A DNA stretch of 12,689 nt from Candidatus Lindowiibacteriota bacterium. GTDB lineage: Bacteria > Lindowbacteria > 2-12-FULL-62-27. Below the pieces are notes generated by a model. That model saw only the letters and a program-made list of their open reading frames with translations. It was not told the origin of the DNA and ran no database searches. Shown here one piece after another: positions 1 through 12,689 of this stretch. The DNA lies in NCBI GenBank assembly GCA_023249255.1, contig JAHFCY010000078.1:1-12689 (forward strand), read 5' to 3'. A program made the translations under genes and the position numbers. Each line of letters opens with the position of its first letter. The first letter of the stretch is position 1.

Positions 1-96
1 ACCGTCGATCAAACCAGCACGATCACCTGGGCGGGAATCAAATATCTGAATAGCGACGCCGGCACCATCGTGTCGGCGGACTGGACGATGAAATAG
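1..96 (+). CDS. 3' end of an unidentified protein gene (partial)
   Basis: The plus strand is open from the first base to a TAG at 94-96, giving the last 31 residues of a protein that ends in DWTMK. The fragment alternates Thr, Ser, Ile and Val with Trp and Gly (TITWAGIKYLN, then GTIVSADW). This resembles a beta-strand-rich extracellular or secreted domain, but no family is recognisable. Coding on this strand is supported by third positions: 24 of 31 codons end in G or C, as in neighbouring genes. The mirrored minus frame is also open but only 12 of 32 codons end in G or C. It is convergent with the prepilin gene, with only six bases (CCGCGG) between the two stop codons. It could encode a surface or pilus-associated protein, but that is only a guess from position. 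Confidence 0.5.
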   Translation, partial: TVDQTSTITWAGIKYLNSDAGTIVSADWTMK

Positions 97-102
97 CCGC
101 GG

Positions 103-645
103 TCAGCCGCCGAAGTTCCTCATCGTTACGGTGGCGGACAGGGGCAGGGTCCGTTTTTTGTCACTGGATTGAATCTCCAGATCGAGCGTGACCGTGCTGA
201 TGAGGCTTGTGTCCGTCATTTCTGCGAAAGTGTAGGTCGAGGTGTCCATTCCGTAGTATTTGAATGCGACGCTCTGGACGCTGTCAGCCACGGTCGATGT
301 TTTTCCGTCGAACAAATTTTTCAGGATCAATTGATTTCCCGACAGGTAAAACTGATACGGCGTGGCCGTGATGTTAAGAGTCAGGGTGCTCGCGCTCACG
401 CCGACGACGTTCTGCGCCATCCAGGTTTTTGGAAGAAAGCCGTTCAGGCCGGGAAATCCGAACATGCCGGCATTTCCATCGTCCGCCATGTCGGACGTGG
501 TGGTGATGTACTTGGAACACGCGTTGCCGACCACGAACAATTGAACAAACGCGGCCGATAAGATGACGAGGATCACCGTCGCCACCAGCATCTCGATCAG
601 CGTCACGCCCCGCATGGCCGCGCGGGATCGGTCGAATTTTTTCAC
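103..645 (-). CDS. Prepilin-like protein with class III leader (PilW/GspJ-like minor pilin)
   Basis: This 180-residue protein begins with a short basic leader and the class III prepilin motif RG|VTLIEM at residues 12-19. Cleavage by prepilin peptidase after Gly13 would leave Glu at mature position 5, followed by a hydrophobic helix to about residue 39. The rest is a soluble beta-rich head typical of minor pilins and pseudopilins (GspJ/PilW type); the exact subclass is not certain. The chosen start is GTG at 645, which gives the basic leader KKFDRSR. An ATG ten codons later would leave only a two-residue leader before the cleavage glycine. It lies nine bases after the stop of the other prepilin gene and is probably the last gene of the assembly operon. 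It should be inserted in the inner membrane, processed and incorporated into a pilus or pseudopilus. Confidence 0.85.
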   Translation of the reverse strand: MKKFDRSRAAMRGVTLIEMLVATVILVILSAAFVQLFVVGNACSKYITTTSDMADDGNAGMFGFPGLNGFLPKTWMAQNVVGVSASTLTLNITATPYQFYLSGNQLILKNLFDGKTSTVADSVQSVAFKYYGMDTSTYTFAEMTDTSLISTVTLDLEIQSSDKKRTLPLSATVTMRNFGG

Positions 646-654
646 GACGGTCGC

Positions 655-1152
655 CTACATCTGCGAAAACATGTCATGGAGCGTCACCAGCGTCTGGCCG
701 CTCTTCTTTACAGTCACCGTCACGCGCTTGCGGGTCGTGGTCGATGCGGACACGCCGTTATTGGCGTCGAGAAACGCGACGGCGACATCGCGGCTGAATC
801 CCGTATAGCCCGTCATCGCCGCGCCGGCCGGATATTGGATCGAGGATTCGACGTAGCCGTTGAAATCGTCGACGTCGTCGAAGGTCGTCTTGTTCGTGGC
901 GTTTTCGCCGGCGTCAACGCCGAGCGTCGACGAAATCGATCCGTTCGTGTTTTCATCCCACCGGCGGCCGTGAATTTCCTCCATGAGGCTCATCGCGAGA
1001 TACATCGCGCGGGTCACGTTGACGCTTTTGTCGGCGGACCGGTTGGCTGTCGTGTAGAGCGAGGCGAGGGTGACGGCAACCATGCCGATGATAACCATCG
1101 AAAGGTTGACCTCGACCAGCGTCATGCCGGCCGGGCGGCCCGGACGCGTCAA
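655..1152 (-). CDS. Prepilin-like protein with class III leader (GspI/PilV-like)
   Basis: This 165-residue protein has leader MTRPGRPAG followed by MTLVEVNLSMVIIGMV. It is a type IV prepilin signal with Gly at -1, Glu at +5 and a hydrophobic N-terminal helix to about residue 30. The soluble head carries Thr/Ser-rich strands and ends in HDMFSQM. Size and motif fit a minor pseudopilin of the GspI/PilV kind; the exact class is inferred. The start is a TTG at 1152, supported by a GGAG five bases upstream and by overlap of TTGA with the stop codon of the GspF/PilC gene, implying translational coupling. The next ATG would remove the whole leader. The product is expected in the inner membrane, then in the pilus or pseudopilus filament with its downstream neighbour. 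Confidence 0.85.
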   Translation of the reverse strand: MTRPGRPAGMTLVEVNLSMVIIGMVAVTLASLYTTANRSADKSVNVTRAMYLAMSLMEEIHGRRWDENTNGSISSTLGVDAGENATNKTTFDDVDDFNGYVESSIQYPAGAAMTGYTGFSRDVAVAFLDANNGVSASTTTRKRVTVTVKKSGQTLVTLHDMFSQM

Positions 1153-2230: not shown

Positions 2231-3970
2231 CTATCCCGCGACGACCCGGAGAAGTTCCTCGCAGGACGTGTCGCCGTTCAGGACTTTCATCATGCCGTTT
2301 TCGTACATCGTGTGAAAACCGACACCGCGGGCCGCCTCCATAATCTCGTTGTCCGGCGCCCGCGCCTGAATCTTGTCCTGAATGTCCCGGTTGATCACGA
2401 GAAGTTCAAAGACGCCGACCCGGCGGCGATAGCCGGTTTTGGAGCATTTGTCGCATCCCGTCGGACGATAAAACGTGTACGGCTCGGACGGCGGCGGAAG
2501 GCCGAGACGTTCCACCTGCGCGGCGTCCGGCTCGTACGGTTTTCGGCAGTACGGGCAGAGAAGCCGGATCAGGCGCTGGGCGATGATGCCCTTGAGCGAG
2601 GAACTCAACAAAAACGGTTCGATGCCCATGTCCATGAGGCGCGAGATCGAACCACAGGCGCTGTTGGTGTGCAGGGTCGAAAAGACCAGGTGGCCGGTCA
2701 GGGCGGCGTGGATCGAAATTTCGGCCGTCTCCTGATCGCGAATCTCGCCGACCAGAAGGACGTCCGGGTCCTGCCGAAGAAGCGAACGAAGAGCGGCGGC
2801 GAAGGTCATCCCGATGGCGGCGTTGAGCGTGACCTGATTGATGCCGGCCACCTGATATTCGACGGGATCTTCCAGCGTGGAGATGTTGACCGTATCGTCT
2901 TTGATGCTCTGCAGGGCGGCATAGAGGGTTGTCGTTTTGCCGGAACCGGTCGGACCCGTCACCAGAATGATGCCGTTGGGACTTTGGAGAAGCTGTTTGA
3001 AGGGAGTAAGAATTTCCGGAGGCATGCCGATTTTGTCGATGTCCTGCTGGCTTTCGTCCTTGTCCAGAATTCGCATGACCACTTTTTCCCCGGTGACGAG
3101 CGGCAGACTCGACACGCGAAGGTCGACGTTGCGGTCGGTGAGTTTCATCCGGATTCTGCCGTCCTGCGGTTTTCTCGTTTCCGCGATATCGAGTTTGGCG
3201 ATGATTTTGATTCGGGACGCGACGGTCGGCGCCAGCGCGCGCGGCAGGGACATGATCTCGCTCAAGACGCCGTCCATCCGGTAGCGGACGATCAGTTTGT
3301 CGGCCCGGGGTTCGATGTGGATATCCGAGGCCCTCTTGTTGATCGCGCCCAACAAAATCTGGTTGACGAGTTTGATCACGGGCGCGTCGTCGAGGACTTC
3401 AAGATTCGGATCGACGACGTCTGTCGGTGTCGACACTTCAAAAGTCGTGTACTCCTTGTCCTCGTCCGTCGCGCCCGCCTGCCTCACCTCTTCGGTGGCT
3501 TTCGAGATCGTTGAATGCAGTTCGGCGGCCTCGTCCGGCCGGAACATTTTTGTAATCGCCGCCAAAACGGCATTCCGCGTGCTGATGACCGGCTGGACCG
3601 ACAATCCGGTCTGGCTTCCGATCTGATCGCAGGCCGCCACGTCATAGGGATTGAGCATGGCCAGCATGAGATGGTCGCCCTCCTGAAACAGCGGCACGAC
3701 CTGATACTGTCGGCAATATTTTTCCGGAAGGAATTTGGCGCTTTCGGGTGTGAGGAACGGATCTAGATCCTCAAAGTAGGCGATCTGATCTTTCATGCCG
3801 ATGCCCTTGATGATCTGCGCCTCCGTGGCAAATCCGGCGGTGATCAGAATTTCCCGAAGGTCTCCGCCGACAGTCCCCACGCGGCGGGCCTCGATGGCCT
3901 CATTGAGCTGTTCCTGCGTGATGACTCCGACTTCCACCAGCACTTCACCCAGCCTGTCCGTCTGTTCCAT
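2231..3970 (-). CDS. Type II secretion / type IV pilus assembly ATPase (GspE/PilB family)
   Basis: This is the hexameric cytoplasmic ATPase that powers pilin or pseudopilin assembly. Counted from ATG 3970 it is 579 residues. An N-terminal MshEN-like domain (about 6-140) starts with RLGEVLVEVG. The T2SSE core follows, with SDIHIEP near 215-221, Walker A GPTGSGKT at 339-346, an Asp box with ISTLEDPVEY near 364-373, Walker B LLVGEIRD near 405-412, and a His box GHLVFSTLHTN near 426-436. A zinc-binding set CxxC-CxxC is present (Cys472, 475, 506 and 509). All catalytic elements are intact. A TTG one codon upstream is possible, but AAGGAG lies seven bases before the ATG. The gene follows the CheY-like gene by about 11 bases and is coupled to the GspF/PilC gene downstream. 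GspE, PilB and MshE cannot be separated by eye. Confidence 0.95.
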   Translation of the reverse strand: MEQTDRLGEVLVEVGVITQEQLNEAIEARRVGTVGGDLREILITAGFATEAQIIKGIGMKDQIAYFEDLDPFLTPESAKFLPEKYCRQYQVVPLFQEGDHLMLAMLNPYDVAACDQIGSQTGLSVQPVISTRNAVLAAITKMFRPDEAAELHSTISKATEEVRQAGATDEDKEYTTFEVSTPTDVVDPNLEVLDDAPVIKLVNQILLGAINKRASDIHIEPRADKLIVRYRMDGVLSEIMSLPRALAPTVASRIKIIAKLDIAETRKPQDGRIRMKLTDRNVDLRVSSLPLVTGEKVVMRILDKDESQQDIDKIGMPPEILTPFKQLLQSPNGIILVTGPTGSGKTTTLYAALQSIKDDTVNISTLEDPVEYQVAGINQVTLNAAIGMTFAAALRSLLRQDPDVLLVGEIRDQETAEISIHAALTGHLVFSTLHTNSACGSISRLMDMGIEPFLLSSSLKGIIAQRLIRLLCPYCRKPYEPDAAQVERLGLPPPSEPYTFYRPTGCDKCSKTGYRRRVGVFELLVINRDIQDKIQARAPDNEIMEAARGVGFHTMYENGMMKVLNGDTSCEELLRVVAG

Positions 3971-3981
3971 CAATGGGCTCC

Positions 3982-4353
3982 TTATGGATTTAAAATGCGC
4001 CCGATTTTTTCACGAAGGGCTTCGACTTTGAAAGGTTTGACCACATAGTCGTTCGCGCCAAGCCGGATGGCTCCATCGACGTACTCCGGTTTTTCATAAC
4101 CGGACATCACAATGACCGGAATGCCGGCCGTCGCCTCGTCCGCCTTGAGCTCCTGCAATATCTGATAGCCGTCTTTGTTGGGAAGCGCGAGGTCAAGCAA
4201 GATGACCGACGGGGGATCCTGTTTGACGACCTCGACCAGATTCATCCCGTCGGCGACGTGCGTCACCACAAACCCGTCCTTTTTCAGGAGGAACTGGGTC
4301 ATCTTCGACATATTGACATCATCATCGCAAATCAAAATTTTTTGGCCGCTCAT
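3982..4353 (-). CDS. Stand-alone CheY-like response regulator receiver
   Basis: This 123-residue protein is a single receiver domain with no output domain. The acidic pocket Asp10-Asp12, phospho-acceptor Asp54 (ILLDLALP), Ser84 in IVMSG, Tyr103 and Lys106 (VVKPF) are all present, so it should be competent for phosphorylation. Lacking a DNA-binding or enzymatic domain, it presumably signals by protein contact. Its position between a hybrid kinase carrying an Hpt domain and a pilus-type ATPase suggests it is the terminal receiver of that phosphorelay and acts on the assembly machine; this is inferred from context. The ATG at 4353 has no strong Shine-Dalgarno. The AAGGAG of the ATPase gene lies just after this gene's TAA stop, favouring co-translation of the two. 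Confidence 0.93.
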   Translation of the reverse strand: MSGQKILICDDDVNMSKMTQFLLKKDGFVVTHVADGMNLVEVVKQDPPSVILLDLALPNKDGYQILQELKADEATAGIPVIVMSGYEKPEYVDGAIRLGANDYVVKPFKVEALREKIGRILNP

Positions 4354-4362
4354 ATTCGCTTA

Positions 4363-4388
4363 CGCCTGCCCAGCATACACGGCAGGCG
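4363..4388. repeat. GCCTGCC/GGCAGGC inverted repeat between kinase and receiver genes
   Basis: CGCCTGCC at 4363-4370 pairs perfectly with GGCAGGCG at 4381-4388 around a ten-base loop. No T-run follows on either strand, so it does not look like an intrinsic terminator. The same GCCTGCC core recurs as a hairpin near 10815-10831 between fabF and rnc, which suggests a small dispersed palindromic repeat. It lies within the candidate promoter for the receiver-pilus genes and ends about ten bases before the receiver ATG. Confidence 0.6.
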
Positions 4389-4400
4389 GAATAAAAGCAA
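4372..4400 (-). promoter_or_regulatory. Candidate sigma70-type promoter for the receiver-pilus genes
   Basis: Read on the minus strand, TTGCTT (4400-4395) and TATGCT (4377-4372) are separated by 17 bases. These are partial matches to -35 and -10 boxes at ideal spacing, 18 bases before the receiver ATG. The region is one of the few gaps inside this gene run. The match is imperfect and overlaps an inverted repeat, so this is a weak prediction only. Confidence 0.22.
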
Positions 4401-4426
4401 TTTGTCGAAGACCTGCAGGCACGGAT

Positions 4427-6997
4427 TCATTCATATTCGATCCGAACCCGGTCCATGTATCGGATCAGTTCATGGGCCGCCGCGCGGATCTGATCGGCGT
4501 TCCCCGACTTGGCGCCGTCTTCGATCAATTTGCCGTGCACGGTCACCGGATCAAACCCGAACGCGCCGCCGGAGCCTTTGAGTTTGTGGCCGCGTTTCTG
4601 GATGGAGGCGAAATCCTGCCGGCCGAGTTCCTCCAAAATGGCGGTCAGATGCTCCCGCGTGTCTCCGATAAACTGATCGACGAATTCCCGCAGGTCTTTG
4701 TCCACCTTCACAAGGATTTCTGCGGATACCGGTTGTACCGGCGGCTGCGATGGCATTTTTTCTTCAGGCGGCGGGGGCGGAAGAGGTTGTGACGCATCCG
4801 GCAGACGGTCGACGGTTCCCGTGTATTTTTTCAGAAGCGAAAACAGTTTCGACTTCTTGACGGGCTTTGTCGCGTGCTCGTTGCATCCCGAGTCAAGACT
4901 CTTGCGGACGTCCTCCACCATGGCGTCGGCCGAGAGGGCGACGATGGGCGTTTTGGCGAGACCGTTTTCCTTCTGCCAGGCCCGGATCACGCGCGTGGCG
5001 GTGAATCCGTCCATCACAGGCATCTGAAGGTCCATGAAAATGACGTCATAAGATTCGCCCGCGCGAATTTTGTCCACGGCGATTTTGCCGTGTTCCGCGA
5101 ATTCCAGCCGGTGAGGCGAGTTCTGGAGGTACGCCCGGATCACCACGCGATTCTGTTCGTAGTCCTCGACAACGAGGATTTTCAGCGGCGGAAGATTTTC
5201 ATCCGCCGCAATCCCCCGCGCGGCCCGGGCGCCGCGCTTGAAATCCTTCGCCACGCCGAGCCTGACCGAGAATTTGAACGCACTGCCCTTGCCCAGAACA
5301 CTCTCGACCCAGATTTTTCCGCCCATGAGTTCCACCAGTTGCTTGCAGATCGAAAGCCCCAGCCCCGTGCCGCCATACATGCGGGTCGTGCCGGCGTCGG
5401 CTTGGGAGAATTTTTCAAAAATCGTGCCGCATTTGTCCGGCGGAATACCGATGCCCGTGTCTGAAATGGAGATCAGCAAATCACCCGCATCCGTTGAATC
5501 CGGGCGTTTTTCAATCCGGAGTTTGATATCGCCGTTTTCGGTGAACTTGATGGAATTTCCGATCAGGTTGATCATGATCTGTCGGAGCCGCGTCGGGTCG
5601 CCCTCCAATCCGTCCGGCACGCCTGCGTCGACCTCCCGGGACAGATTCACATTTTTGGCTCGCGCGCGGATGACCAGAAGTTCGACCGTCTGTTCGGCCA
5701 GGTCGCGGATGTCGAAAGCGATTTTCTCAAGTTCCAGCCGGCCGGCCTCGATTTTGGATATGTCCAGAATGTCGTTGATCAGTCCCAGCAGGGCATCGCC
5801 GGCGCTGCTGATGGTCGAGACGTATTTGTGATGCTCGGCCGACAGGCCGGACTCCAACAGCACGTCCGACATGCCGATGATCGCGTTCATGGGCGTCCGG
5901 ATTTCGTGGCTCATCCGGGCCAGAAAATCCGATTTCTCCTGATTGGCCGTCTCGGCCGCGGCTTGGGCCGATTTGAGTTCCCTTTCGGCGCGCTTGCGTT
6001 CGGTGATGTCGCGCGCGAAGAGACAGTAGTACTCCAGTTCGTCGTATTCCAGAAAATTGCCCGATATCTCGACCGGGATGAGACCGCTGTCGGCGCTCAT
6101 GTGGACGGCCTCATAGATGAGAGAACGCTTTTGGCGAAGATCGTTCCAGAATTCCTGCCACGTGTCCTCGGGATGGTCGGAATTGATCTGGTGGATGGTC
6201 ATGGTCAGCAGTTCATCGCGGCTGTATCCGAGCGACCGGCAGGCCGCGTCGTTCACGTAGATGATCTTGCCGTCCGACATGATCCAGAACGCCGGATCGG
6301 ATGCGGTATCGAGTGAAAACCTGGTGAATTTCAGCGCCTTCTCGGCCATCTTGCGATCGGAAATGTCCTCGATCATCAAAAAACATGCGTCGATGCGGCC
6401 GGCCGCATCCCGAAGCGGCGAGCCCCGGACCCTCGCCCAAAACGGCGACCCGTCCATCCGGATAAATCTGAACTCCATCCGGAAGACGTCCGAGTTGCCG
6501 GCCATGAATCCCGCAAATTCCTCTCCGAAGGACTTTTCGTCCCGCGCGTAGATGAATTCCGAAAAAATCGCCGATCGCAGTTCGGATTCTCCGTAACCGA
6601 GCAGGCTCTGCAGAGCGGAATTGATTTCCACGATGCGGCCGTCCCGGTCAAGGATCGTCATGCCGCGATGGGATTTGACGAAAATTTCGTGATAGCGGGA
6701 TTTGGTTCCGGTCGCGTCGGTCGCATCCTCGGCCTGGCGGCGATCCGTGACATCGCGGAGGATCATCACGAAGGCTGGCTGGTCGCCCCACATCGCCTCG
6801 ACGCCGCGAATTTCCATGAGACCGAGTTCCCCGTCATCCCGGAAAAAATGGACCTCCTGCGGCCGGTCCGTCTGAATCGGATATCCGAACGACTCGCCCT
6901 TCATGCTTCCGGCACTGCGACCGAGAAGCCGGGCCGCGTCCGGCGTGGCGTAAAGAACCGTTCCCTCCAGCGTGACTGCGACGATACCGTCGGCCAT
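4427..6997 (-). CDS. Cytoplasmic hybrid sensor histidine kinase (PAS x3, HisKA, HATPase, REC, Hpt)
   Basis: This 856-residue protein has no signal peptide or membrane segment. It has PAS domains at about 1-85, 100-215 and 225-335, then HisKA with phospho-accepting His364 (FLARMSHEIRTPMN). The HATPase has an N-box Asn near 481, DTGIGIP near 513-519 and GGTGLGLSI near 542-550. The receiver has Glu611/Asp612, Asp656 (FMDLQMP) and Lys711. A proline-rich linker follows at about 738-754, then an Hpt domain with His804 (GHKLKGSGGAFGF). All phosphorelay residues are present, allowing His-Asp-His transfer and then transfer to the adjacent CheY-like protein. The ATG at 6997 is eight bases after the upstream gene's stop and begins directly inside the first PAS fold, with no clear Shine-Dalgarno. 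The upstream frame has no ATG, GTG or TTG before a stop at 7064-7066. The stimulus is unknown. Confidence 0.94.
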   Translation of the reverse strand: MADGIVAVTLEGTVLYATPDAARLLGRSAGSMKGESFGYPIQTDRPQEVHFFRDDGELGLMEIRGVEAMWGDQPAFVMILRDVTDRRQAEDATDATGTKSRYHEIFVKSHRGMTILDRDGRIVEINSALQSLLGYGESELRSAIFSEFIYARDEKSFGEEFAGFMAGNSDVFRMEFRFIRMDGSPFWARVRGSPLRDAAGRIDACFLMIEDISDRKMAEKALKFTRFSLDTASDPAFWIMSDGKIIYVNDAACRSLGYSRDELLTMTIHQINSDHPEDTWQEFWNDLRQKRSLIYEAVHMSADSGLIPVEISGNFLEYDELEYYCLFARDITERKRAERELKSAQAAAETANQEKSDFLARMSHEIRTPMNAIIGMSDVLLESGLSAEHHKYVSTISSAGDALLGLINDILDISKIEAGRLELEKIAFDIRDLAEQTVELLVIRARAKNVNLSREVDAGVPDGLEGDPTRLRQIMINLIGNSIKFTENGDIKLRIEKRPDSTDAGDLLISISDTGIGIPPDKCGTIFEKFSQADAGTTRMYGGTGLGLSICKQLVELMGGKIWVESVLGKGSAFKFSVRLGVAKDFKRGARAARGIAADENLPPLKILVVEDYEQNRVVIRAYLQNSPHRLEFAEHGKIAVDKIRAGESYDVIFMDLQMPVMDGFTATRVIRAWQKENGLAKTPIVALSADAMVEDVRKSLDSGCNEHATKPVKKSKLFSLLKKYTGTVDRLPDASQPLPPPPPEEKMPSQPPVQPVSAEILVKVDKDLREFVDQFIGDTREHLTAILEELGRQDFASIQKRGHKLKGSGGAFGFDPVTVHGKLIEDGAKSGNADQIRAAAHELIRYMDRVRIEYE

Positions 6998-7005
6998 TGA
7001 GAATT

Positions 7006-8277
7006 TCAGGCCCCGGGAGACTTGGCCTGGAATTTGAACTTCTCGCCGATTTCCTTTTTCAGGTCATCCGGAATGTAGGGATTGCGGTACAGGACCTCCA
7101 TGATCATCCTAAAGTGAGACCGTTCCTTGTAGAGCCACATCGCAAAGGGGCGGTCGATGTCCTTGTTCGCGGCCATGGTGGACAGTTCGCGCGGGGACTT
7201 GAGTCCGAATCGCGAATCCAATTTGGCCATCTCGGTCTGCTCGTCAGCCGCGATCCGGTCCAGAACCGACGTCGCGGCCTGACGCTTGGATTCCTCCACC
7301 ACTTTCTCGTGCTGCGTGCGGGCGGCCAGAATATACGCGTACAGCCGCCCGATCTGCTGGGCCCGCGCCATAATTTCATCATCCGTCTGCGCCGTCCGAA
7401 CCTGATCGGCCAGTCCGTCCAGGGACTGGGCGACACCCGGCAGATTCAGAGGCAAATCCAGTTTCATCTGGCTGATAAAATCATCCGTGGCGTCTTTCAG
7501 CATCTGCGTCTCGTACCGGGCGCTCTGGTCGGTCATCTGCTGCAACAGGCGCTGGTCGTTGAGAATCTTGCGATCGGCCGGGCCGACGTAAAAAATGTCG
7601 TGGCCGACACGGAACGTGATCAGGCGGATGATGAATTTGATTGCTCTTCCGAAGGAGCCGGAGGACCGATACGCGATTTCCTCCCGGGCGTCAAGGCAGA
7701 GTCGCCTCCGACGCCTTTCATCCTCCGGCGGCAACCCCATTTTCGCGAGGATGGCAAGACCCTTGTCAAAATGCTTTTGGGCAAGCTGGAAATTTTCAAA
7801 TACGCCGGTTGAACCGCACCGGAAATGGTAGACGCCCTTGTTGATGTGGGCGTCCGCATTTCCGCTCTTGATCGCCTCCGCAAACAATTTGCCCGCCGAT
7901 CGGGCCTGACCCTTCTCCGCCAGATAGGCGCCGAGGTACTGGTAGTCCTCGTAATTGAAAAATTCGAGATTATATTTTTCGACGATCCGGATCGGTTTTT
8001 CGCTCACGTAAACGAGGAGCGAGGCATCGTCCCGCGACCGCAGTTTCGTCCAGACCGATTTCGTCAACGGATCGTATTTGGCCGCCATGAGATTTCCGTC
8101 TTTGTCCGGGATATCGGTCATGGCGCGGGGCGTTTCTCCAATCTCCAGAATTTTCGTGTTCAGGTATTCCCGCGGCGCAAGCTTGACGAAATTCTCCCCC
8201 CAGCGCTCCTCGGACGCGGATACGCCCTCCCCGACTTCGCCGACCCACGACTCGAATGCCTCTTCCGGGGTCGACAT
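7006..8277 (-). CDS. Unrecognised soluble protein with TPR-like helices
   Basis: This 423-residue protein is not one I recognise. It has no signal peptide and no convincing membrane helix, so it is probably cytoplasmic. Residues about 112-178 form paired helices resembling tetratricopeptide repeats (YLGAYLAEKGQARSAGKLF, then a helix pair ending in HFDKGLAILAKMG). This suggests a protein-binding scaffold. A basic amphipathic stretch lies at about 205-232. Long, charged, probably coiled-coil-prone helices occupy about 236-355, and a Pro/Arg/Tyr-rich C-terminus follows (LYRNPYIPDDLKKEIGEKF). The ATG at 8277 is four bases after the stop of the membrane protein gene, and the kinase starts eight bases after this gene ends. 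That tight packing implies the three are co-expressed, perhaps with this protein as an adaptor between membrane sensor and kinase; this role is inferred. Confidence 0.8.
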   Translation of the reverse strand: MSTPEEAFESWVGEVGEGVSASEERWGENFVKLAPREYLNTKILEIGETPRAMTDIPDKDGNLMAAKYDPLTKSVWTKLRSRDDASLLVYVSEKPIRIVEKYNLEFFNYEDYQYLGAYLAEKGQARSAGKLFAEAIKSGNADAHINKGVYHFRCGSTGVFENFQLAQKHFDKGLAILAKMGLPPEDERRRRRLCLDAREEIAYRSSGSFGRAIKFIIRLITFRVGHDIFYVGPADRKILNDQRLLQQMTDQSARYETQMLKDATDDFISQMKLDLPLNLPGVAQSLDGLADQVRTAQTDDEIMARAQQIGRLYAYILAARTQHEKVVEESKRQAATSVLDRIAADEQTEMAKLDSRFGLKSPRELSTMAANKDIDRPFAMWLYKERSHFRMIMEVLYRNPYIPDDLKKEIGEKFKFQAKSPGA

Positions 8278-8281
8278 CGGA

Positions 8282-10057
8282 TTAAGCGGGTTTTGCGGGC
8301 GCCGGGAGCCGGCACGCGTACGTAATCACGGCTTCGACGTCCTCGCGATTCGCCGTCGCGTCGATTTTGAGCAGATCGTCCGCCTCCATGTCCGCCAGAT
8401 CCTCCAGCCGGCGCAATCCCGCGGCAAACCAGCGGCCCACAACCTCCCGGGGAATTTTTCTGACTATGCGGACATCCGTGATGAATACCTGCTTGAAATC
8501 GGACTCGGTGAAATACAGACGGGATTTGGGAATGAGACGCATCTTGTCGATCAGTTGCTTGACGTCATTCTCAGCCTCCGGCCCGTACTTTTTGACGATG
8601 TCGAGCGCGCCGTCATCAAGAAATGAGGGCAGGCGCGTGAATCCGAGTTTGTGCAATTTGACGGCCTTGCGGGGATCGAAGTTGAACATGAACGCCAGCT
8701 TCACGATAAAAACCTTCCGCTCGAACGCCGGGTCCTTCAGCGCCTCCGGCTCCTCCGGAGCAATGTCATCCTCGGCTTCCCCGCCCATATCCTCCGACGC
8801 ACCCTTGATCCACTCGTCATCCGAATTAAGCAGTGCCCAGCCACCCGCCTGGCGGTCGACCAACTTGTCCCAGTCGTCATGGAGTTTTTGGAGGACGTCA
8901 TGAAAAATTTCGTATCCGGCGCTCCGGTTCGACATCCCGACGGCGGAGAGCGTCAGCATGGGCGTCTTGCCCGACTCGTCTTTTTGAAACAGCGGATGGA
9001 CGGCCTTTTTGAAATATTTTTGGATCAGCGGATAACTCTTCTGAAACGCAGGTTCCGTCAAAAATCCCATAAAAAAATGATCCTGCACGGCAAAGAGAGG
9101 CATGCGGGGCGGCAATCCGACGGTCGCAGCGCCGGCCGTCAGCTTCAAAATCTGGTCCCGGTACGCGCGGCCAAACGACTTGACGTATTCCTTGGCGAAG
9201 TTCGCCCGGATAAAAATGGCAAAAATCTCATCGCCACGCTCATGCGCGCTGACGTAGGCGTTGAGCGCCGCCTGGCCCGACGTGAGACCGGTGACCGGAT
9301 CGACGTTCTCGGCGGCGGCCACCGACGATCGGACGCGGTCGGCGTACCGGTGCAACGCGTCAACTACGTTCCCGAAATCGCCAAATTCATCGGGCGACAG
9401 AGAATCGATCGTTTCCCCTCCCTCCTCCAGCGCCTTCTGCAGGCGGCTCATCGGCTTCTTGACGCTCACGTAAATGGCGGCCGCGATCAGGCAGTAAAAC
9501 AGGGAAAAAACCATGAGCGACATCAGCGCGAACATCGCCCGCCGCGCGCTGACAAATCCCTGCAGATCCATATCCCGCAGGGAGATCATCACCATGCGGC
9601 TCGAAGAATTGCCCGACGTGACGGGAATCCAATACTGCGAGGTCACGTCTCCTGGTCTGGATGACCGTTTGTATTCCTCCTTGGTGATCTTGATATCTTT
9701 CGGAGGTTGATCAAACAGGTTGGGAGCGTAGGAACCGTCAAGTTCGAATGAATAACTCTGCTCCGAGGTGATATTTTCTACAAAGCGATAGACCGCGCCG
9801 CTCAGGAATTTGAAGCCGTTCTCACTCAATTCAGGCGATTGCGCGGCATCGCGCAATTTCCCCGTCAGCCGGGCCGGATCGCCGGCCGAAGCGGCCTGCA
9901 CGCGATTGAGTAGCTGCATGGCCGTTTCCTGCTCGAAATTCTTCCGTTCCACCCTGTAGAGGCCGCCCTTCTCGCCGTTCAGCCAGATGGCAAATGGCAG
10001 ACAGACCAGAAAGCAGGCGAGAAACGATAGAAAATAAACGGAATTAAATTGTTTCAA
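8282..10057 (-). CDS. HAMP membrane sensor-like protein with degenerate GGDEF and C-terminal HhH-like region
   Basis: This 591-residue protein has membrane helices at about 8-26 and 174-198, flanking a periplasmic sensing region of about 145 residues. A HAMP-like linker follows at about 199-245. Residues about 252-400 resemble a diguanylate cyclase fold: DPVTGLTS matches the usual entry motif, and MLTLSAVGMS with a following helix matches its C-terminal part. However, the catalytic GGDEF loop position reads QDHFFMGFL (325-333), so cyclase activity is unlikely. After an acidic linker (about 422-445), a helical region ends with GLRRLEDLADMEADDLLKI (547-565), a helix-hairpin-helix-like pattern. 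The start is TTG at 10057, the only candidate between the gene body and an in-frame stop six codons upstream. It is probably an inner-membrane receptor or scaffold for the kinase module. The family assignment is by pattern only. Confidence 0.8.
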   Translation of the reverse strand: MKQFNSVYFLSFLACFLVCLPFAIWLNGEKGGLYRVERKNFEQETAMQLLNRVQAASAGDPARLTGKLRDAAQSPELSENGFKFLSGAVYRFVENITSEQSYSFELDGSYAPNLFDQPPKDIKITKEEYKRSSRPGDVTSQYWIPVTSGNSSSRMVMISLRDMDLQGFVSARRAMFALMSLMVFSLFYCLIAAAIYVSVKKPMSRLQKALEEGGETIDSLSPDEFGDFGNVVDALHRYADRVRSSVAAAENVDPVTGLTSGQAALNAYVSAHERGDEIFAIFIRANFAKEYVKSFGRAYRDQILKLTAGAATVGLPPRMPLFAVQDHFFMGFLTEPAFQKSYPLIQKYFKKAVHPLFQKDESGKTPMLTLSAVGMSNRSAGYEIFHDVLQKLHDDWDKLVDRQAGGWALLNSDDEWIKGASEDMGGEAEDDIAPEEPEALKDPAFERKVFIVKLAFMFNFDPRKAVKLHKLGFTRLPSFLDDGALDIVKKYGPEAENDVKQLIDKMRLIPKSRLYFTESDFKQVFITDVRIVRKIPREVVGRWFAAGLRRLEDLADMEADDLLKIDATANREDVEAVITYACRLPAPAKPA

Positions 10058-10099
10058 AACAGATCCGCACTTTCATCCGGCAATGCGCCCATGCGCGGT

Positions 10100-10126
10100 G
10101 ATATAGCATAAATCCCGGGCCGTCAC
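10100..10126 (-). promoter_or_regulatory. Candidate extended -10 promoter ahead of the sensor operon
   Basis: On the minus strand, TGCTATATC (10108-10100) resembles an extended -10 element, with GTGACG (10126-10121) 15 bases upstream as a poor -35. It lies in the 65-base gap between the rnc stop and the TTG start of the membrane protein gene. It would separate transcription of the sensor-pilus cluster from the fab-rnc operon. No intrinsic terminator is seen in this gap, so read-through from rnc is equally possible. The call is weak. Confidence 0.25.
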
Positions 10127-10800
10127 GATACGGGGCCGGACAGAAGTTGTTCGATGGCGCTTCTGGCGGCTTCAGATTCAGCTTCGCGTTTACTCCGGCC
10201 GGCGCCCCGGCCCAGAACGCGGGTCTCGAACATCGCCTCGACAACGTAGGTCGGAGCATGGTCCGGGCCGCTGGTCTCCACAACGCGGTAGATCGGCGCG
10301 GCCTTGTGCTCCTTTAAAAACATCTCATTGAGTTTCGCCTTCGGATTTTCGATGCCCTCGGTCACGGCGCCGGTCAGGTGGACGCCGAAATGCCTGTGAA
10401 CAAATTCGATCGACGGATCCATGCCGCCGTCCAGATAGATCGCGCCCAAAATCGCCTCCGTCACGTCCGACATAATCGCCGTGCCTTCAACGCTTGCCGC
10501 CGGTCCGACACGCACATGTCGGTCGAGGCCGAGGTTCTGCGCGACGCGCTCGCAGGCCGACCGGTTGACCACCTGGCTCGTGCGTTTTGTCAGATCGCCG
10601 GCAGGCAGATCGAGGTCGCGGTAGAGTTTTTCGCTGACAATCAGACCCAATACGGCGTCGCCCAGAAATTCCAGCCGCTCGTAATCGCCGCCGTTGAGAT
10701 CGAGCGACCGGTACGACCGGTGCGTGAGGGCGATCAGGAGAAGATTCGGATCGGAAAAGGTGTAGCCGATAATCGACTGGACGGCGGCGAGGTCAGTCAA
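10123..10800 (-). CDS. rnc: Ribonuclease III
   Basis: This double-strand-specific endoribonuclease matures rRNA and some mRNAs as a homodimer in the cytoplasm. The family signature ERLEFLGDAVLG is at about 41-52 counted from the TTG at 10800. The metal-binding acidic residues are present (Glu41, Glu44 and Asp48 in the signature; Asp112 and Glu115 in SDVTEAILGAIYLDGG). A double-stranded RNA-binding domain follows at about 152-222, starting with NPKAKLNEM. The frame is open to a TTG at 10860, giving 245 residues. Those first 20 residues are encoded by a palindrome and a 7-base tandem repeat. Starting at TTG 10800 gives 225 residues, the normal size, with GYTF at the expected distance from the N-terminus. 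Position after fabF is a common bacterial arrangement. Confidence 0.95.
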   Translation of the reverse strand: MTDLAAVQSIIGYTFSDPNLLLIALTHRSYRSLDLNGGDYERLEFLGDAVLGLIVSEKLYRDLDLPAGDLTKRTSQVVNRSACERVAQNLGLDRHVRVGPAASVEGTAIMSDVTEAILGAIYLDGGMDPSIEFVHRHFGVHLTGAVTEGIENPKAKLNEMFLKEHKAAPIYRVVETSGPDHAPTYVVEAMFETRVLGRGAGRSKREAESEAARSAIEQLLSGPVS

Positions 10801-10814
10801 TGCAACTTCGCCCG

Positions 10815-10831
10815 CCTGCCGGACGGGCAGG
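10815..10831. repeat. CCTGCC/GGCAGG hairpin at the 5' edge of rnc
   Basis: CCTGCC at 10815-10820 pairs with GGCAGG at 10826-10831 around a five-base loop. It shares its GCCTGCC core with the inverted repeat at 4363-4388, pointing to a dispersed palindromic family. There is no T-run after it in the direction of transcription, so it is not a typical terminator. It sits just upstream of the preferred rnc start. Confidence 0.55.
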
Positions 10832-10837
10832 GGTGGC

Positions 10838-10858
10838 GGATTGCGGATTGCGGATTTC
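10838..10858. repeat. Short tandem repeat, GGATTGC type, 3 units
   Basis: Two exact copies of GGATTGC (10838-10844 and 10845-10851) are followed by a variant GGATTTC (10852-10858). Together with the adjacent hairpin it occupies the short region between fabF and the probable rnc start. This low-complexity array makes it unlikely that the upstream TTG at 10860 is the true rnc start. Confidence 0.7.
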
Positions 10859-10893
10859 AAACAAAAGAAATACGCAACCTGAAATTCGCGGGA

Positions 10894-12147
10894 TCATTGA
10901 AATTTAGTGAGGAGCAGACAGCCGTTGTGCCCGCCGAATCCGAACGAGTTGCTGAGCGCGGCCCGCATCGGCTTTTCGCGCGGGGTGTTGGGCACGTAGT
11001 CCAGGTCGCATTCGGGGTCGGGCGTCTCGTAATGGTGCGTGGGCGGCGCGATGCCCTTCTGAAGCGCAAGCGCGCAGGCAATCGCCTCGACCGCGCCGGC
11101 CGCGCCAAGGAGGTGTCCCGTGATGGATTTGGTCGAGCTGACCCAGAGTTTTTTGGCGTGATCGCCGAAGACGTCCCGGATCGCCTTGCTTTCCGCCCGG
11201 TCGTTGAATTTGGTCGACGTGCCGTGGGCGTTGACGTACTCGACGTCGGACGGATTGAGCCGGGCGTCGGCAACCGCCATCGACATCGCGCGGCGCGCGC
11301 CTTTGCCCTCCGGCTCCGGCTCGGTGATGTGGTATGCGTCGGCCGACAGCCCGTAACCGGCGACTTCGGCGTATATTTTCGCGCCGCGCTTTATCGCGCG
11401 CTCCAACTCTTCAAGCACAACCACCCCCGCTCCTTCGCCCATCACAAATCCGTCCCGGTTGAGGTCAAAGGGCTTGGAGGCGTGGGCGGGATCGTCGTTT
11501 CGGCGCGACAGCGCCCGCATGCTGCAAAATCCGCCGAACCCCAGCGCACTGATGGCGGCTTCGGTGCCGCCGGCGATCATGACGTCGGCGTCGTGGCGCT
11601 GGATGATTTTCATCGCGTCACCGATCGCATGCGATCCGCTCGCGCAGGCGGTGACCTGCGACAGGTTCGGGCCGCAGAATCCGTAGCGGATGGCGATTTC
11701 ACCGCTGGCCATGTTGATGATGAGTTTGGGGATCAGAAACGGCGAGACTTTCGGATGGTCGGAATCCAGATCCAATTCGCGGGCCTCATGTTCAAGCGTG
11801 GCAATGCCGCCGATGCCTGACCCGATGATGACGCCGACGCGCTCCAGGTCCTCACGAGCCGGATCAATACCGCTGTCCGCGATTGACTCCTTGGCTGCGA
11901 CAATTGCAACCTGAACAAACCGGTCCATGCGCTTGATCTCTTTCGTCGAAAAATGCTCTTCCGGTTTGTATCCGAGAATTTCGCAGGCGAATGTGGTGGG
12001 GAATTTGGACGCGTCAAATTGCTCAACGGTCCGGGCGGCGCACCGGCCCGCAAGGATGGAGTCCCAGAAAATGGAAACGCCATTGCCGTTGGGCGTGATG
12101 GCGCCCATGCCGGTGATGACGACTCTGCGATCGGATTGAATGGACAT
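10894..12147 (-). CDS. fabF: 3-oxoacyl-[acyl-carrier-protein] synthase II
   Basis: This condensing enzyme elongates acyl chains on ACP with malonyl-ACP in type II fatty acid synthesis. The 417-residue length is normal. The thiolase-fold catalytic set is complete: nucleophile Cys168 (VTACASGSHA), His308 (NAHGTSTKFND), Lys340 and His345 (STKSITGHLLGAAGA). The C-terminal glycine-rich NSFGFGGHNG also fits KAS II. The presence of two active-site histidines separates it from FabH. The ATG at 12147 is preceded by a purine-rich GGGAGAGGG and starts 41 bases after the acpP stop. It is in the usual fabG-acpP-fabF order, and the gene ends in the repeat patch before rnc. Confidence 0.97.
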   Translation of the reverse strand: MSIQSDRRVVITGMGAITPNGNGVSIFWDSILAGRCAARTVEQFDASKFPTTFACEILGYKPEEHFSTKEIKRMDRFVQVAIVAAKESIADSGIDPAREDLERVGVIIGSGIGGIATLEHEARELDLDSDHPKVSPFLIPKLIINMASGEIAIRYGFCGPNLSQVTACASGSHAIGDAMKIIQRHDADVMIAGGTEAAISALGFGGFCSMRALSRRNDDPAHASKPFDLNRDGFVMGEGAGVVVLEELERAIKRGAKIYAEVAGYGLSADAYHITEPEPEGKGARRAMSMAVADARLNPSDVEYVNAHGTSTKFNDRAESKAIRDVFGDHAKKLWVSSTKSITGHLLGAAGAVEAIACALALQKGIAPPTHHYETPDPECDLDYVPNTPREKPMRAALSNSFGFGGHNGCLLLTKFQ

Positions 12148-12188
12148 CCCTCTCCCGTCCTTCGGTGGTGACGGCGGTGGATCCGGCG

Positions 12189-12428
12189 CTACTCTTTGAC
12201 CGCCTTTTTGACGTGGTCGATCGCCTGGCCGACGGTTTTGATTTTTTCCGCCTCTTCATCCGGAATGCTGATGCCAAATTCCTGCTCGAAGGCCATGACG
12301 AGTTCCGCGGTGTCCAGGGAATCAGCGCCCAGATCGTCGATGAACGACGCTGCGTCCTTGACCTCCTCCTCGGTCACACCCAGTTGATCGATGATAATCT
12401 CCCGAACCCTCTCCTCAATGCTTGCCAT
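12189..12428 (-). CDS. acpP: Acyl carrier protein
   Basis: This 79-residue acidic protein carries acyl intermediates of fatty acid synthesis on a phosphopantetheine arm. The attachment site is Ser37 in [10 protein letters not shown]. The four-helix ACP pattern is evident ([15 protein letters not shown], then [22 protein letters not shown], then [11 protein letters not shown]). The frame could extend 17 codons upstream. However, ATG 12428 has a strong GGGAG five bases before it and gives the standard ACP N-terminus MASIEERV, so the longer form is rejected. It lies between fabG and fabF; a stem-loop in the fabG-acpP gap could affect its expression. Confidence 0.97.
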
Positions 12429-12449
12429 GATGTCTCCCTTCGTTGATCC

Positions 12450-12487
12450 TCCGATTTGACGGCCGGCGGTGACGCCCAAAAATCGGA
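12450..12487 (-). other. Stem-loop in the fabG-acpP intergenic region
   Basis: TCCGATTT at 12450-12457 pairs perfectly with AAATCGGA at 12480-12487 across a 22-base loop. Inside the loop a second short stem is possible, GGCG (12465-12468) with CGCC (12473-12476). It lies in the mRNA after the fabG stop and ends about 11 bases before the acpP Shine-Dalgarno. No T-run follows, so it is not a standard terminator. It could be an mRNA processing or stabilising structure; this is inferred. Confidence 0.5.
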
Positions 12488-12497
12488 TACACCCTTA

Positions 12498-12689
12498 TTA
12501 CATCGCCATTCCGCCGTCAATACGAATGATCTCGCCCGTGATGTAGCCGGCGGCGTCCGAGGCGAGGAAGGCGGTGAGCGCGGCGACCTCTTCGGGCCGG
12601 GCAAACCGCTCGGCCGGCGTGCGTTTGATGATCTCCTCGCGGATTTGCGGCGACAGGCCATGCGTCATTTCAGTTTCAATGAATCCCGG
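12498..12689 (-). CDS. fabG: 3-oxoacyl-[acyl-carrier-protein] reductase, C-terminal part (partial)
   Basis: The minus strand is open from the window's right edge to a TAA at 12500-12498, immediately followed by a second TAA. It encodes the last 63 residues of a short-chain dehydrogenase/reductase. The sequence starts PGFIETEMT, the conserved loop after the nucleotide-binding core, and continues with RFARPEEVAALTAFLAS and then YITGEIIRIDGGMAM, the typical FabG tail. The catalytic Ser-Tyr-Lys and the Rossmann motif lie outside the window. FabG is an NADPH-dependent cytoplasmic enzyme that reduces 3-ketoacyl-ACP. Its position upstream of acpP and fabF supports FabG over other SDR enzymes. Confidence 0.93.
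   Translation of the reverse strand, partial: PGFIETEMTHGLSPQIREEIIKRTPAERFARPEEVAALTAFLASDAAGYITGEIIRIDGGMAM

What the first reader, a model, noticed from the sequence alone, without database searches (positions are those of the whole stretch)
2231..10057. Sensor-phosphorelay genes joined to a pilus/secretion motor: a possible signal-controlled pseudopilus system
Genes run in one direction in the order HAMP membrane protein, unknown TPR-like protein, hybrid kinase with Hpt, lone receiver, GspE/PilB ATPase, with GspF/PilC and two prepilins following. Most gaps are under about 12 bases. Regulators are known near pilus genes, but a full phosphorelay with a degenerate-GGDEF membrane protein and an unknown adaptor directly upstream of a compact ATPase-platform-prepilin set is not a standard arrangement I recognise. 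The functional link is inferred from proximity.
Basis: partly seen in the sequence, partly recalled or inferred. Interest (0 to 1): 0.7.

Follow-up and report, generated by a model that had tools for sequence, protein, structure and literature searches.

The report
Phosphorelay wired to a pilus-type motor
In an uncultured bacterium, a complete His-Asp-His-Asp signalling relay is encoded directly in front of the motor ATPase of a pilus-like machine, and because the same kinase-receiver-motor order recurs in unrelated bacteria, including one where receiver and motor are a single protein, the relay probably controls the motor directly; two further unknown genes in front are a separate unit.

Summary
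The genes are real and in the stated order, but the block is two separable units. Unit B is a soluble PAS hybrid kinase with an Hpt domain, a lone receiver, GspE, GspF and two prepilins. It is conserved in another genus in the same order, with all four phospho-acceptor residues kept. Unit A is the 591-aa membrane protein plus the 423-aa protein. In both relatives it lies elsewhere, mostly beside sugar-PTS genes; both families were found only in these three genomes of 386 searched. The HAMP, degenerate-GGDEF and TPR labels are weakly supported at best.

The arrangement is not unique. Kinase-receiver-(receiver)-GspE recurs in three other families (4/4, 7/7 and 3 loci). A further family has a prepilin peptidase between receiver and GspE, and one genome encodes a GspE-receiver fusion. 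Paralogous GspE genes in one of these families lack receivers (0/6). This supports the phosphorylated receiver acting on the GspE motor, as published for EmvR-PilB and PixE-PilB1. The c-di-GMP site of this GspE looks degenerate. The genome also carries typical T2SS and type IV pilus loci, so this is an extra motor set. Phosphotransfer, receiver-motor binding and cargo are inferred. New variant of a known kind, moderate interest.

The parts
4427..6997 (-). Unit B: soluble hybrid histidine kinase, PAS repeats-HisKA(H364)-HATPase-REC(D656)-Hpt(H804), no membrane segment
   Evidence: Pfam; conserved phospho-sites with the G002 ortholog; no membrane segment
3982..4353 (-). Unit B: single-domain receiver with canonical acidic residues, D54, S84 and K106
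   Evidence: Pfam REC E=3e-27; 78% identity to the G002 ortholog; alignment with other GspE-linked receivers
2231..3973 (-). Unit B: GspE/PilB-type motor ATPase with Walker motifs, CxxC pairs and an MshEN N-domain whose c-di-GMP motifs look degenerate
   Evidence: Pfam and NCBIfam, PDB alignments, motif reading against PMC5013675
1149..2231 (-). Unit B: GspF/PilC platform protein
   Evidence: T2SSF E=1e-60, GspF E=2e-91
655..1152 (-). Unit B: prepilin, GspI/PilV-like
   Evidence: N_methyl at cut-off, PilV weak; 52% ortholog in G002
103..645 (-). Unit B: prepilin, GspJ/PilW-like
   Evidence: N_methyl and T2SS J N-terminus; 41% ortholog in G002
8282..10057 (-). Unit A: 591-aa membrane protein (TM near 6-24 and 177-195), conserved HhH-like C-terminus; family found only in 3 genomes of one family
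7006..8277 (-). Unit A: 423-aa soluble, mostly helical protein of a new family
10123..12689 (-). Upstream housekeeping genes rnc-fabF-acpP-fabG(cut), not part of the system; genes after rnc differ in G001 and G002

Best explanation
Unit B is a phosphorelay-controlled type IV-filament assembly motor. The soluble PAS kinase senses an unknown cytoplasmic cue, autophosphorylates on H364 and passes the phosphoryl group to D656 and then to Hpt H804 (inferred from canonical, conserved residues). Hpt then phosphorylates D54 of the lone receiver encoded just before GspE (inferred). The receiver has no output domain, so its phospho-state most likely changes its binding to the GspE hexamer and thereby raises or lowers ATPase activity. 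That would switch GspF-coupled assembly of a short pseudopilus or minor-pilin complex (inferred; sign unknown). In this lineage the relay may have replaced c-di-GMP as the input, because the MshEN site looks degenerate. The 591/423-aa pair is an independent unit that happens to sit upstream here.
For: Kinase-receiver-GspE-GspF-prepilin I-prepilin J keep their order in another genus at 55/78/69/66/52/41% identity. All four phospho-acceptors are invariant. Receiver and GspE overlap by 4 nt in G002 and are 8 nt apart here. Histidine kinase-receiver-(receiver)-GspE recurs in family f198 (4/4 orthologs), f225 (7/7) and f75 (three loci in two genomes), while six GspE paralogs in f198 have none. f178 has kinase-receiver-prepilin peptidase-GspE. 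G366 encodes MshEN-T2SSE-Zn ribbon-REC as one 758-aa protein. In the f198 locus the unit continues into GspF, prepilins, a PilM/GspL-like protein and a secretin. Published precedents: EmvR binds PilB and inhibits its ATPase non-competitively (PMC11973254); PixE is reported to bind PilB1 (PMC7690835).
Against: No biochemical test exists here. Kinase and receiver are 73 nt apart, and in G002 a PDDEXK_3 gene lies between them, so co-transcription is not assured. G001 has no close GspE ortholog (best 44%). Lone receivers can serve other targets. In the 90-locus sample only a minority of GspE genes have an adjacent receiver. The GspE tree does not show that the receiver-linked GspEs here and elsewhere share one origin. 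Loci with no REC hit may have receivers too divergent for the phmmer queries used.
Confidence: 0.58

Rival explanations
1. The relay acts on gene expression or on another pathway; the receiver is a phosphate sink or serves another target, and its place before GspE reflects operon convenience.
For: Phosphorelays commonly feed diffusible lone receivers (general knowledge). Many kinases and receivers exist in this genome; the type IV pilus locus has its own PilS/PilR-type pair (L023). Gap and insertion between kinase and receiver.
Against: Receiver-GspE adjacency is kept in several distant families while paralogous GspEs lack it, and there is a GspE-receiver fusion.
Confidence: 0.22
2. One reading: the 591-aa and 423-aa proteins are the membrane sensor and adaptor of the same motor system.
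For: Gaps of 4 and 8 nt and same strand in the window; the 591-aa protein has two membrane segments. A 179-aa weak-receiver protein near ptsI in G000 has a homolog abutting the end of the GspE unit in G002, so the two neighbourhoods have been in contact.
Against: In G001 the pair lies between ptsI and a receiver-HDOD pair, and G001 lacks a close ortholog of this GspE. In G002 the two genes are on separate contigs away from the GspE unit. G002 keeps the kinase without them.
Confidence: 0.12
3. Regulation is by c-di-GMP through the MshEN domain, with the relay controlling only a local cyclase or phosphodiesterase.
For: An MshEN domain is present and the NCBIfam c-di-GMP motif just passes its cut-off at 39.5 against 38 bits. 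In family f198 a GGDEF protein is part of the locus.
Against: Both motif glutamines are absent in the window and G002 GspE, the second-motif Arg is Asp/Asn, and the linker is 7-8 residues rather than 5 (motif from PMC5013675). The paralog PilB in the same genome keeps the motifs. No cyclase is detected in unit B.
Confidence: 0.08

Closest known systems
EmvR-PilB of Xanthomonas oryzae (PMC11973254)
   Same: A single-domain receiver controlled by a sensor kinase binds the motor ATPase and alters its activity; this is the inferred output here.
   Different: EmvR is an orphan receiver whose kinase ColS pairs with another regulator. Here the receiver sits in one cluster with its likely kinase and the motor, with a four-step relay. 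Binding is untested here.
PixE-PilB1 of Synechocystis (review PMC7690835)
   Same: A CheY-like regulator acts on the assembly ATPase.
   Different: PixE carries a PATAN domain and is held by a BLUF photoreceptor; the receiver here is a bare domain under a PAS hybrid kinase with Hpt.
[quoted passage not shown]
   Same: Homologous ATPase, platform and prepilins.
   Different: No secretin, major pilin or L/M subunits in the unit. A typical T2SS locus and a type IVa pilus locus are elsewhere in the genome.
EpsW-EpsZ of Myxococcus (PMC12802240)
   Same: A single-domain receiver acts post-translationally by contacting an enzyme.
   Different: The target is a phosphoglycosyl transferase, not a filament motor.

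Membership tests
His-Asp-His-Asp phosphorelay | HisKA-HATPase, receiver, Hpt and a separate receiver with phospho-acceptor residues | tested here: met
   Pfam; H364, D656, H804, D54 conserved in G002
His-Asp-His-Asp phosphorelay | Actual phosphotransfer between the four sites | not testable with these tools
   needs a biochemical assay
GspE/PilB assembly ATPase | T2SSE domain with Walker motifs and tetracysteine region | tested here: met
   Pfam E=9e-139; GPTGSGKTTT, DPDVLLVGEIRD and CxxC...CxxC in the PDB alignments
Complete T2SS or type IV pilus | Secretin, major pilin and alignment/assembly subunits in the locus | tested here: not met
   Unit B ends after prepilin J in the window (contig end) and after a 361-aa GspK-like protein in G002; a typical T2SS locus is at G000 C82 (read from gene order and starts)
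MshEN c-di-GMP receptor | Two RLGxx..LxxxLxxQ motifs with a 5-residue linker | tested here: not met
   Gln lost in both motifs, Arg lost in motif II, linker 7 (window) or 8 (G002). Wang et al. note that perfect conservation may not be required, so binding is not excluded.
Receiver-controlled pilus motor (EmvR/PixE type) | Receiver binds the motor ATPase and changes its activity | not testable with these tools
   supported only by gene order and fusion
HAMP/GGDEF membrane sensor (591-aa protein) | Recognisable HAMP and GGDEF domains | tested here: inconclusive
   No HAMP hit; GGDEF E=0.08 in one member, hhalign E=0.13; two membrane segments are present
TPR protein (423-aa protein) | Tetratricopeptide repeats over threshold | tested here: inconclusive
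   Best E=0.066 in one of six; low-confidence model with a helical middle

The most novel reading that the evidence does not exclude
Kinase-receiver-GspE operons form a widespread, so far unnamed class of type IV-filament machines in which a dedicated receiver is a regulatory subunit of the motor ATPase. In the window's lineage it runs on a full four-step phosphorelay and has displaced c-di-GMP as the input.
Probability: 0.4. Interest if true: 0.6.

Novelty: new variant of a known kind. Interest (0 to 1): 0.42.

Why it matters
How bacteria switch pilus and secretion motors on and off after they are built is only partly understood, and few direct receiver-to-motor contacts have been shown. A co-encoded kinase, receiver and motor, recurring in distant families and once fused into one protein, gives a clean genetic handle: short soluble proteins that can be purified and tested for phosphorylation-dependent control of ATPase activity.

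Tried and rejected
Conserved co-occurrence of the 591/423-aa pair with the motor was tested in the two held relatives and rejected. Uniqueness of the arrangement was rejected. Degenerate GGDEF and HAMP in the 591-aa protein: only weak support. AlphaFold models were too poor to use: 423-aa protein mean pLDDT 53 with a two-row alignment, 591-aa protein 37.5 from a single sequence; no fold search was made on them. PDB profile searches with both families gave nothing convincing. No sigma-70-like promoter was found in 3900-10200; terminator-like counts were near shuffled expectation. The hairpin in the kinase-receiver gap is no stronger than shuffles (z -0.58). Insertion or chimera by base composition: GC is even across the window. 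Literature searches for an operonic kinase-receiver-GspE arrangement found no description in the held library; subscription journals are mostly missing from it. The organism's name could not be established; one relative is the MAG NC_groundwater_1274 (JACQOF01).

Full report
What is there. The window is the whole of contig C321 in a 3.35-Mb, 366-contig metagenome-assembled genome, 89% complete. All genes of interest lie on the minus strand: fabG(cut)-acpP-fabF-rnc, then the 591-aa protein, the 423-aa protein, a hybrid kinase, a lone receiver, GspE, GspF and two prepilins, up to the contig end. Pfam and NCBIfam confirm PAS repeats-HisKA-HATPase-REC-Hpt, a stand-alone REC, MshEN-T2SSE, T2SSF and two N-methylation motifs. 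Junctions are 4, 8, 73, 8, -1, -4 and 9 nt. The kinase has no membrane segment; the 591-aa protein has two.

Two units, not one. Two other genera of the same family are held (G001, G002). G002 carries kinase-receiver-GspE-GspF-prepilin I-prepilin J in the same order, at 55, 78, 69, 66, 52 and 41% identity, followed by a 361-aa protein that looks GspK-like (no Pfam hit). A PDDEXK_3 protein is inserted between kinase and receiver there. The 591-aa and 423-aa genes are not there: in G002 they are on two other contigs, and in G001 they sit between ptsI and a receiver-HDOD pair at the end of a PTS cluster. In the window's own genome ptsI-104 aa is followed directly by that receiver-HDOD pair without them, so the pair's position is variable. 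Genes after rnc also differ in the three genomes. Both protein families were found only in these three genomes of 386 searched. The 591-aa family has a second copy after enolase in all three, and the 423-aa family a copy after ftsZ in two.

Domain labels. In the 591-aa family only a helix-hairpin-helix-like C-terminus is reasonably supported (best E=5e-7). HAMP is not detected. GGDEF is marginal (E=0.08; profile comparison E=0.13), although a D-x-x-TGL stretch resembles the start of GGDEF domains. The 423-aa family has no domain over threshold. Both structure predictions were too poor to use.

An extra motor set. The same genome has a typical T2SS gene order at C82 and a PilB-PilB-PilT-PilC-PilS-PilR-like locus at C111, so unit B is an additional set (identities there rest on similarity to the window GspE/GspF and on gene order). 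No GspK follows prepilin J in the last 102 bases of the window; instead the end of a frame on the other strand is seen. The secretin and major pilin, if any, must come from elsewhere.

Is the kinase-receiver-motor link more than chance? A profile of this GspE was run over 386 genomes and 90 loci were inspected. Besides the window and G002, a kinase and lone receiver precede GspE in G348, G240, G368 and G297, and in G200 with a prepilin peptidase between. Following these into their orders gave: f198, 4 of 4 orthologs with receiver-receiver-GspE and a hybrid kinase seen upstream where sequence was long enough; f225, 7 of 7 genomes that hold the ortholog, in seven genera; f75, three loci in two genomes. 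Six GspE paralogs in f198 have no receiver. G366 encodes MshEN-T2SSE-Zn ribbon-REC in one 758-aa chain. Receiver residues at the phospho-site are conserved in all of these, the fusion included. A GspE tree puts f198, f225 and f178 in one group (91/92), with the window pair, G348 and the fusion unresolved; four changes of the receiver label are needed against 7.4 in shuffles. So the link is either old with losses or arose several times. Frequencies among all GspEs remain low, and genomes within a family are not independent.

Mechanism. Shown: canonical, conserved H364, D656, H804 and D54, and an intact motor. Inferred: phosphate flow to the lone receiver, and the receiver binding GspE to change its ATPase rate. 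Precedents are EmvR, which binds PilB and lowers its Vmax (PMC11973254), and PixE-PilB1 (PMC7690835). The sign of the effect and the cargo are unknown. The c-di-GMP motif of Wang et al. (PMC5013675) is degenerate in both orthologs: both glutamines lost, Arg of motif II lost, linker 7-8 instead of 5, whereas the paralogous PilB keeps it. Replacement of c-di-GMP by a relay is therefore an attractive but untested idea.

Verdict. Observation partly confirmed; interpretation partly supported. The motor-relay link is likely and is one instance of a recurring arrangement for which no description was found in the papers held; the membrane protein and 'adaptor' most likely do not belong to it.

Noticed in passing
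window 1-96, + strand: A frame open to the contig edge (TVDQTSTITWAGIKYLNSDAGTIVSADWTMK*) looks like the end of a convergent gene right after prepilin J, where G002 has a GspK-like gene.
   Followed up: partly
window 4362-4402: GC-rich inverted repeat in the 73-nt kinase-receiver gap; not stronger than shuffles and without a U tract.
   Followed up: yes
L022 7200-9068, L019 9026-10909, L021 2814-4676: A paralog of the 591-aa protein follows enolase in all three genomes; in the window's genome it is next to a TPR protein, a phosphonate-binding-like protein and a HAMP-GGDEF protein.
   Followed up: partly
L039 7802-9073, L041 8196-9455: Paralogs of the 423-aa protein directly follow genes that look like ftsA-ftsZ in two genomes.
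   Followed up: no
L047 2297-2836 and L036 15457-15987: A weak-receiver protein (49% identical) lies near ptsI-receiver-HDOD in the window's genome and abuts the end of the GspE unit in G002, hinting at rearrangement between the two neighbourhoods.
   Followed up: partly
L156 11062-13338: GspE with C-terminal zinc ribbon and receiver fused in one 758-aa protein.
   Followed up: yes
L064 664-3189, L068 847-3186, L069 880-3186: GspE with an N-terminal TPR extension in family f76 (TPR confirmed by Pfam in the first two).
   Followed up: partly
L036 9658-10032: PDDEXK_3 (GxxExxY-type) gene inserted between kinase and receiver in G002.
   Followed up: partly
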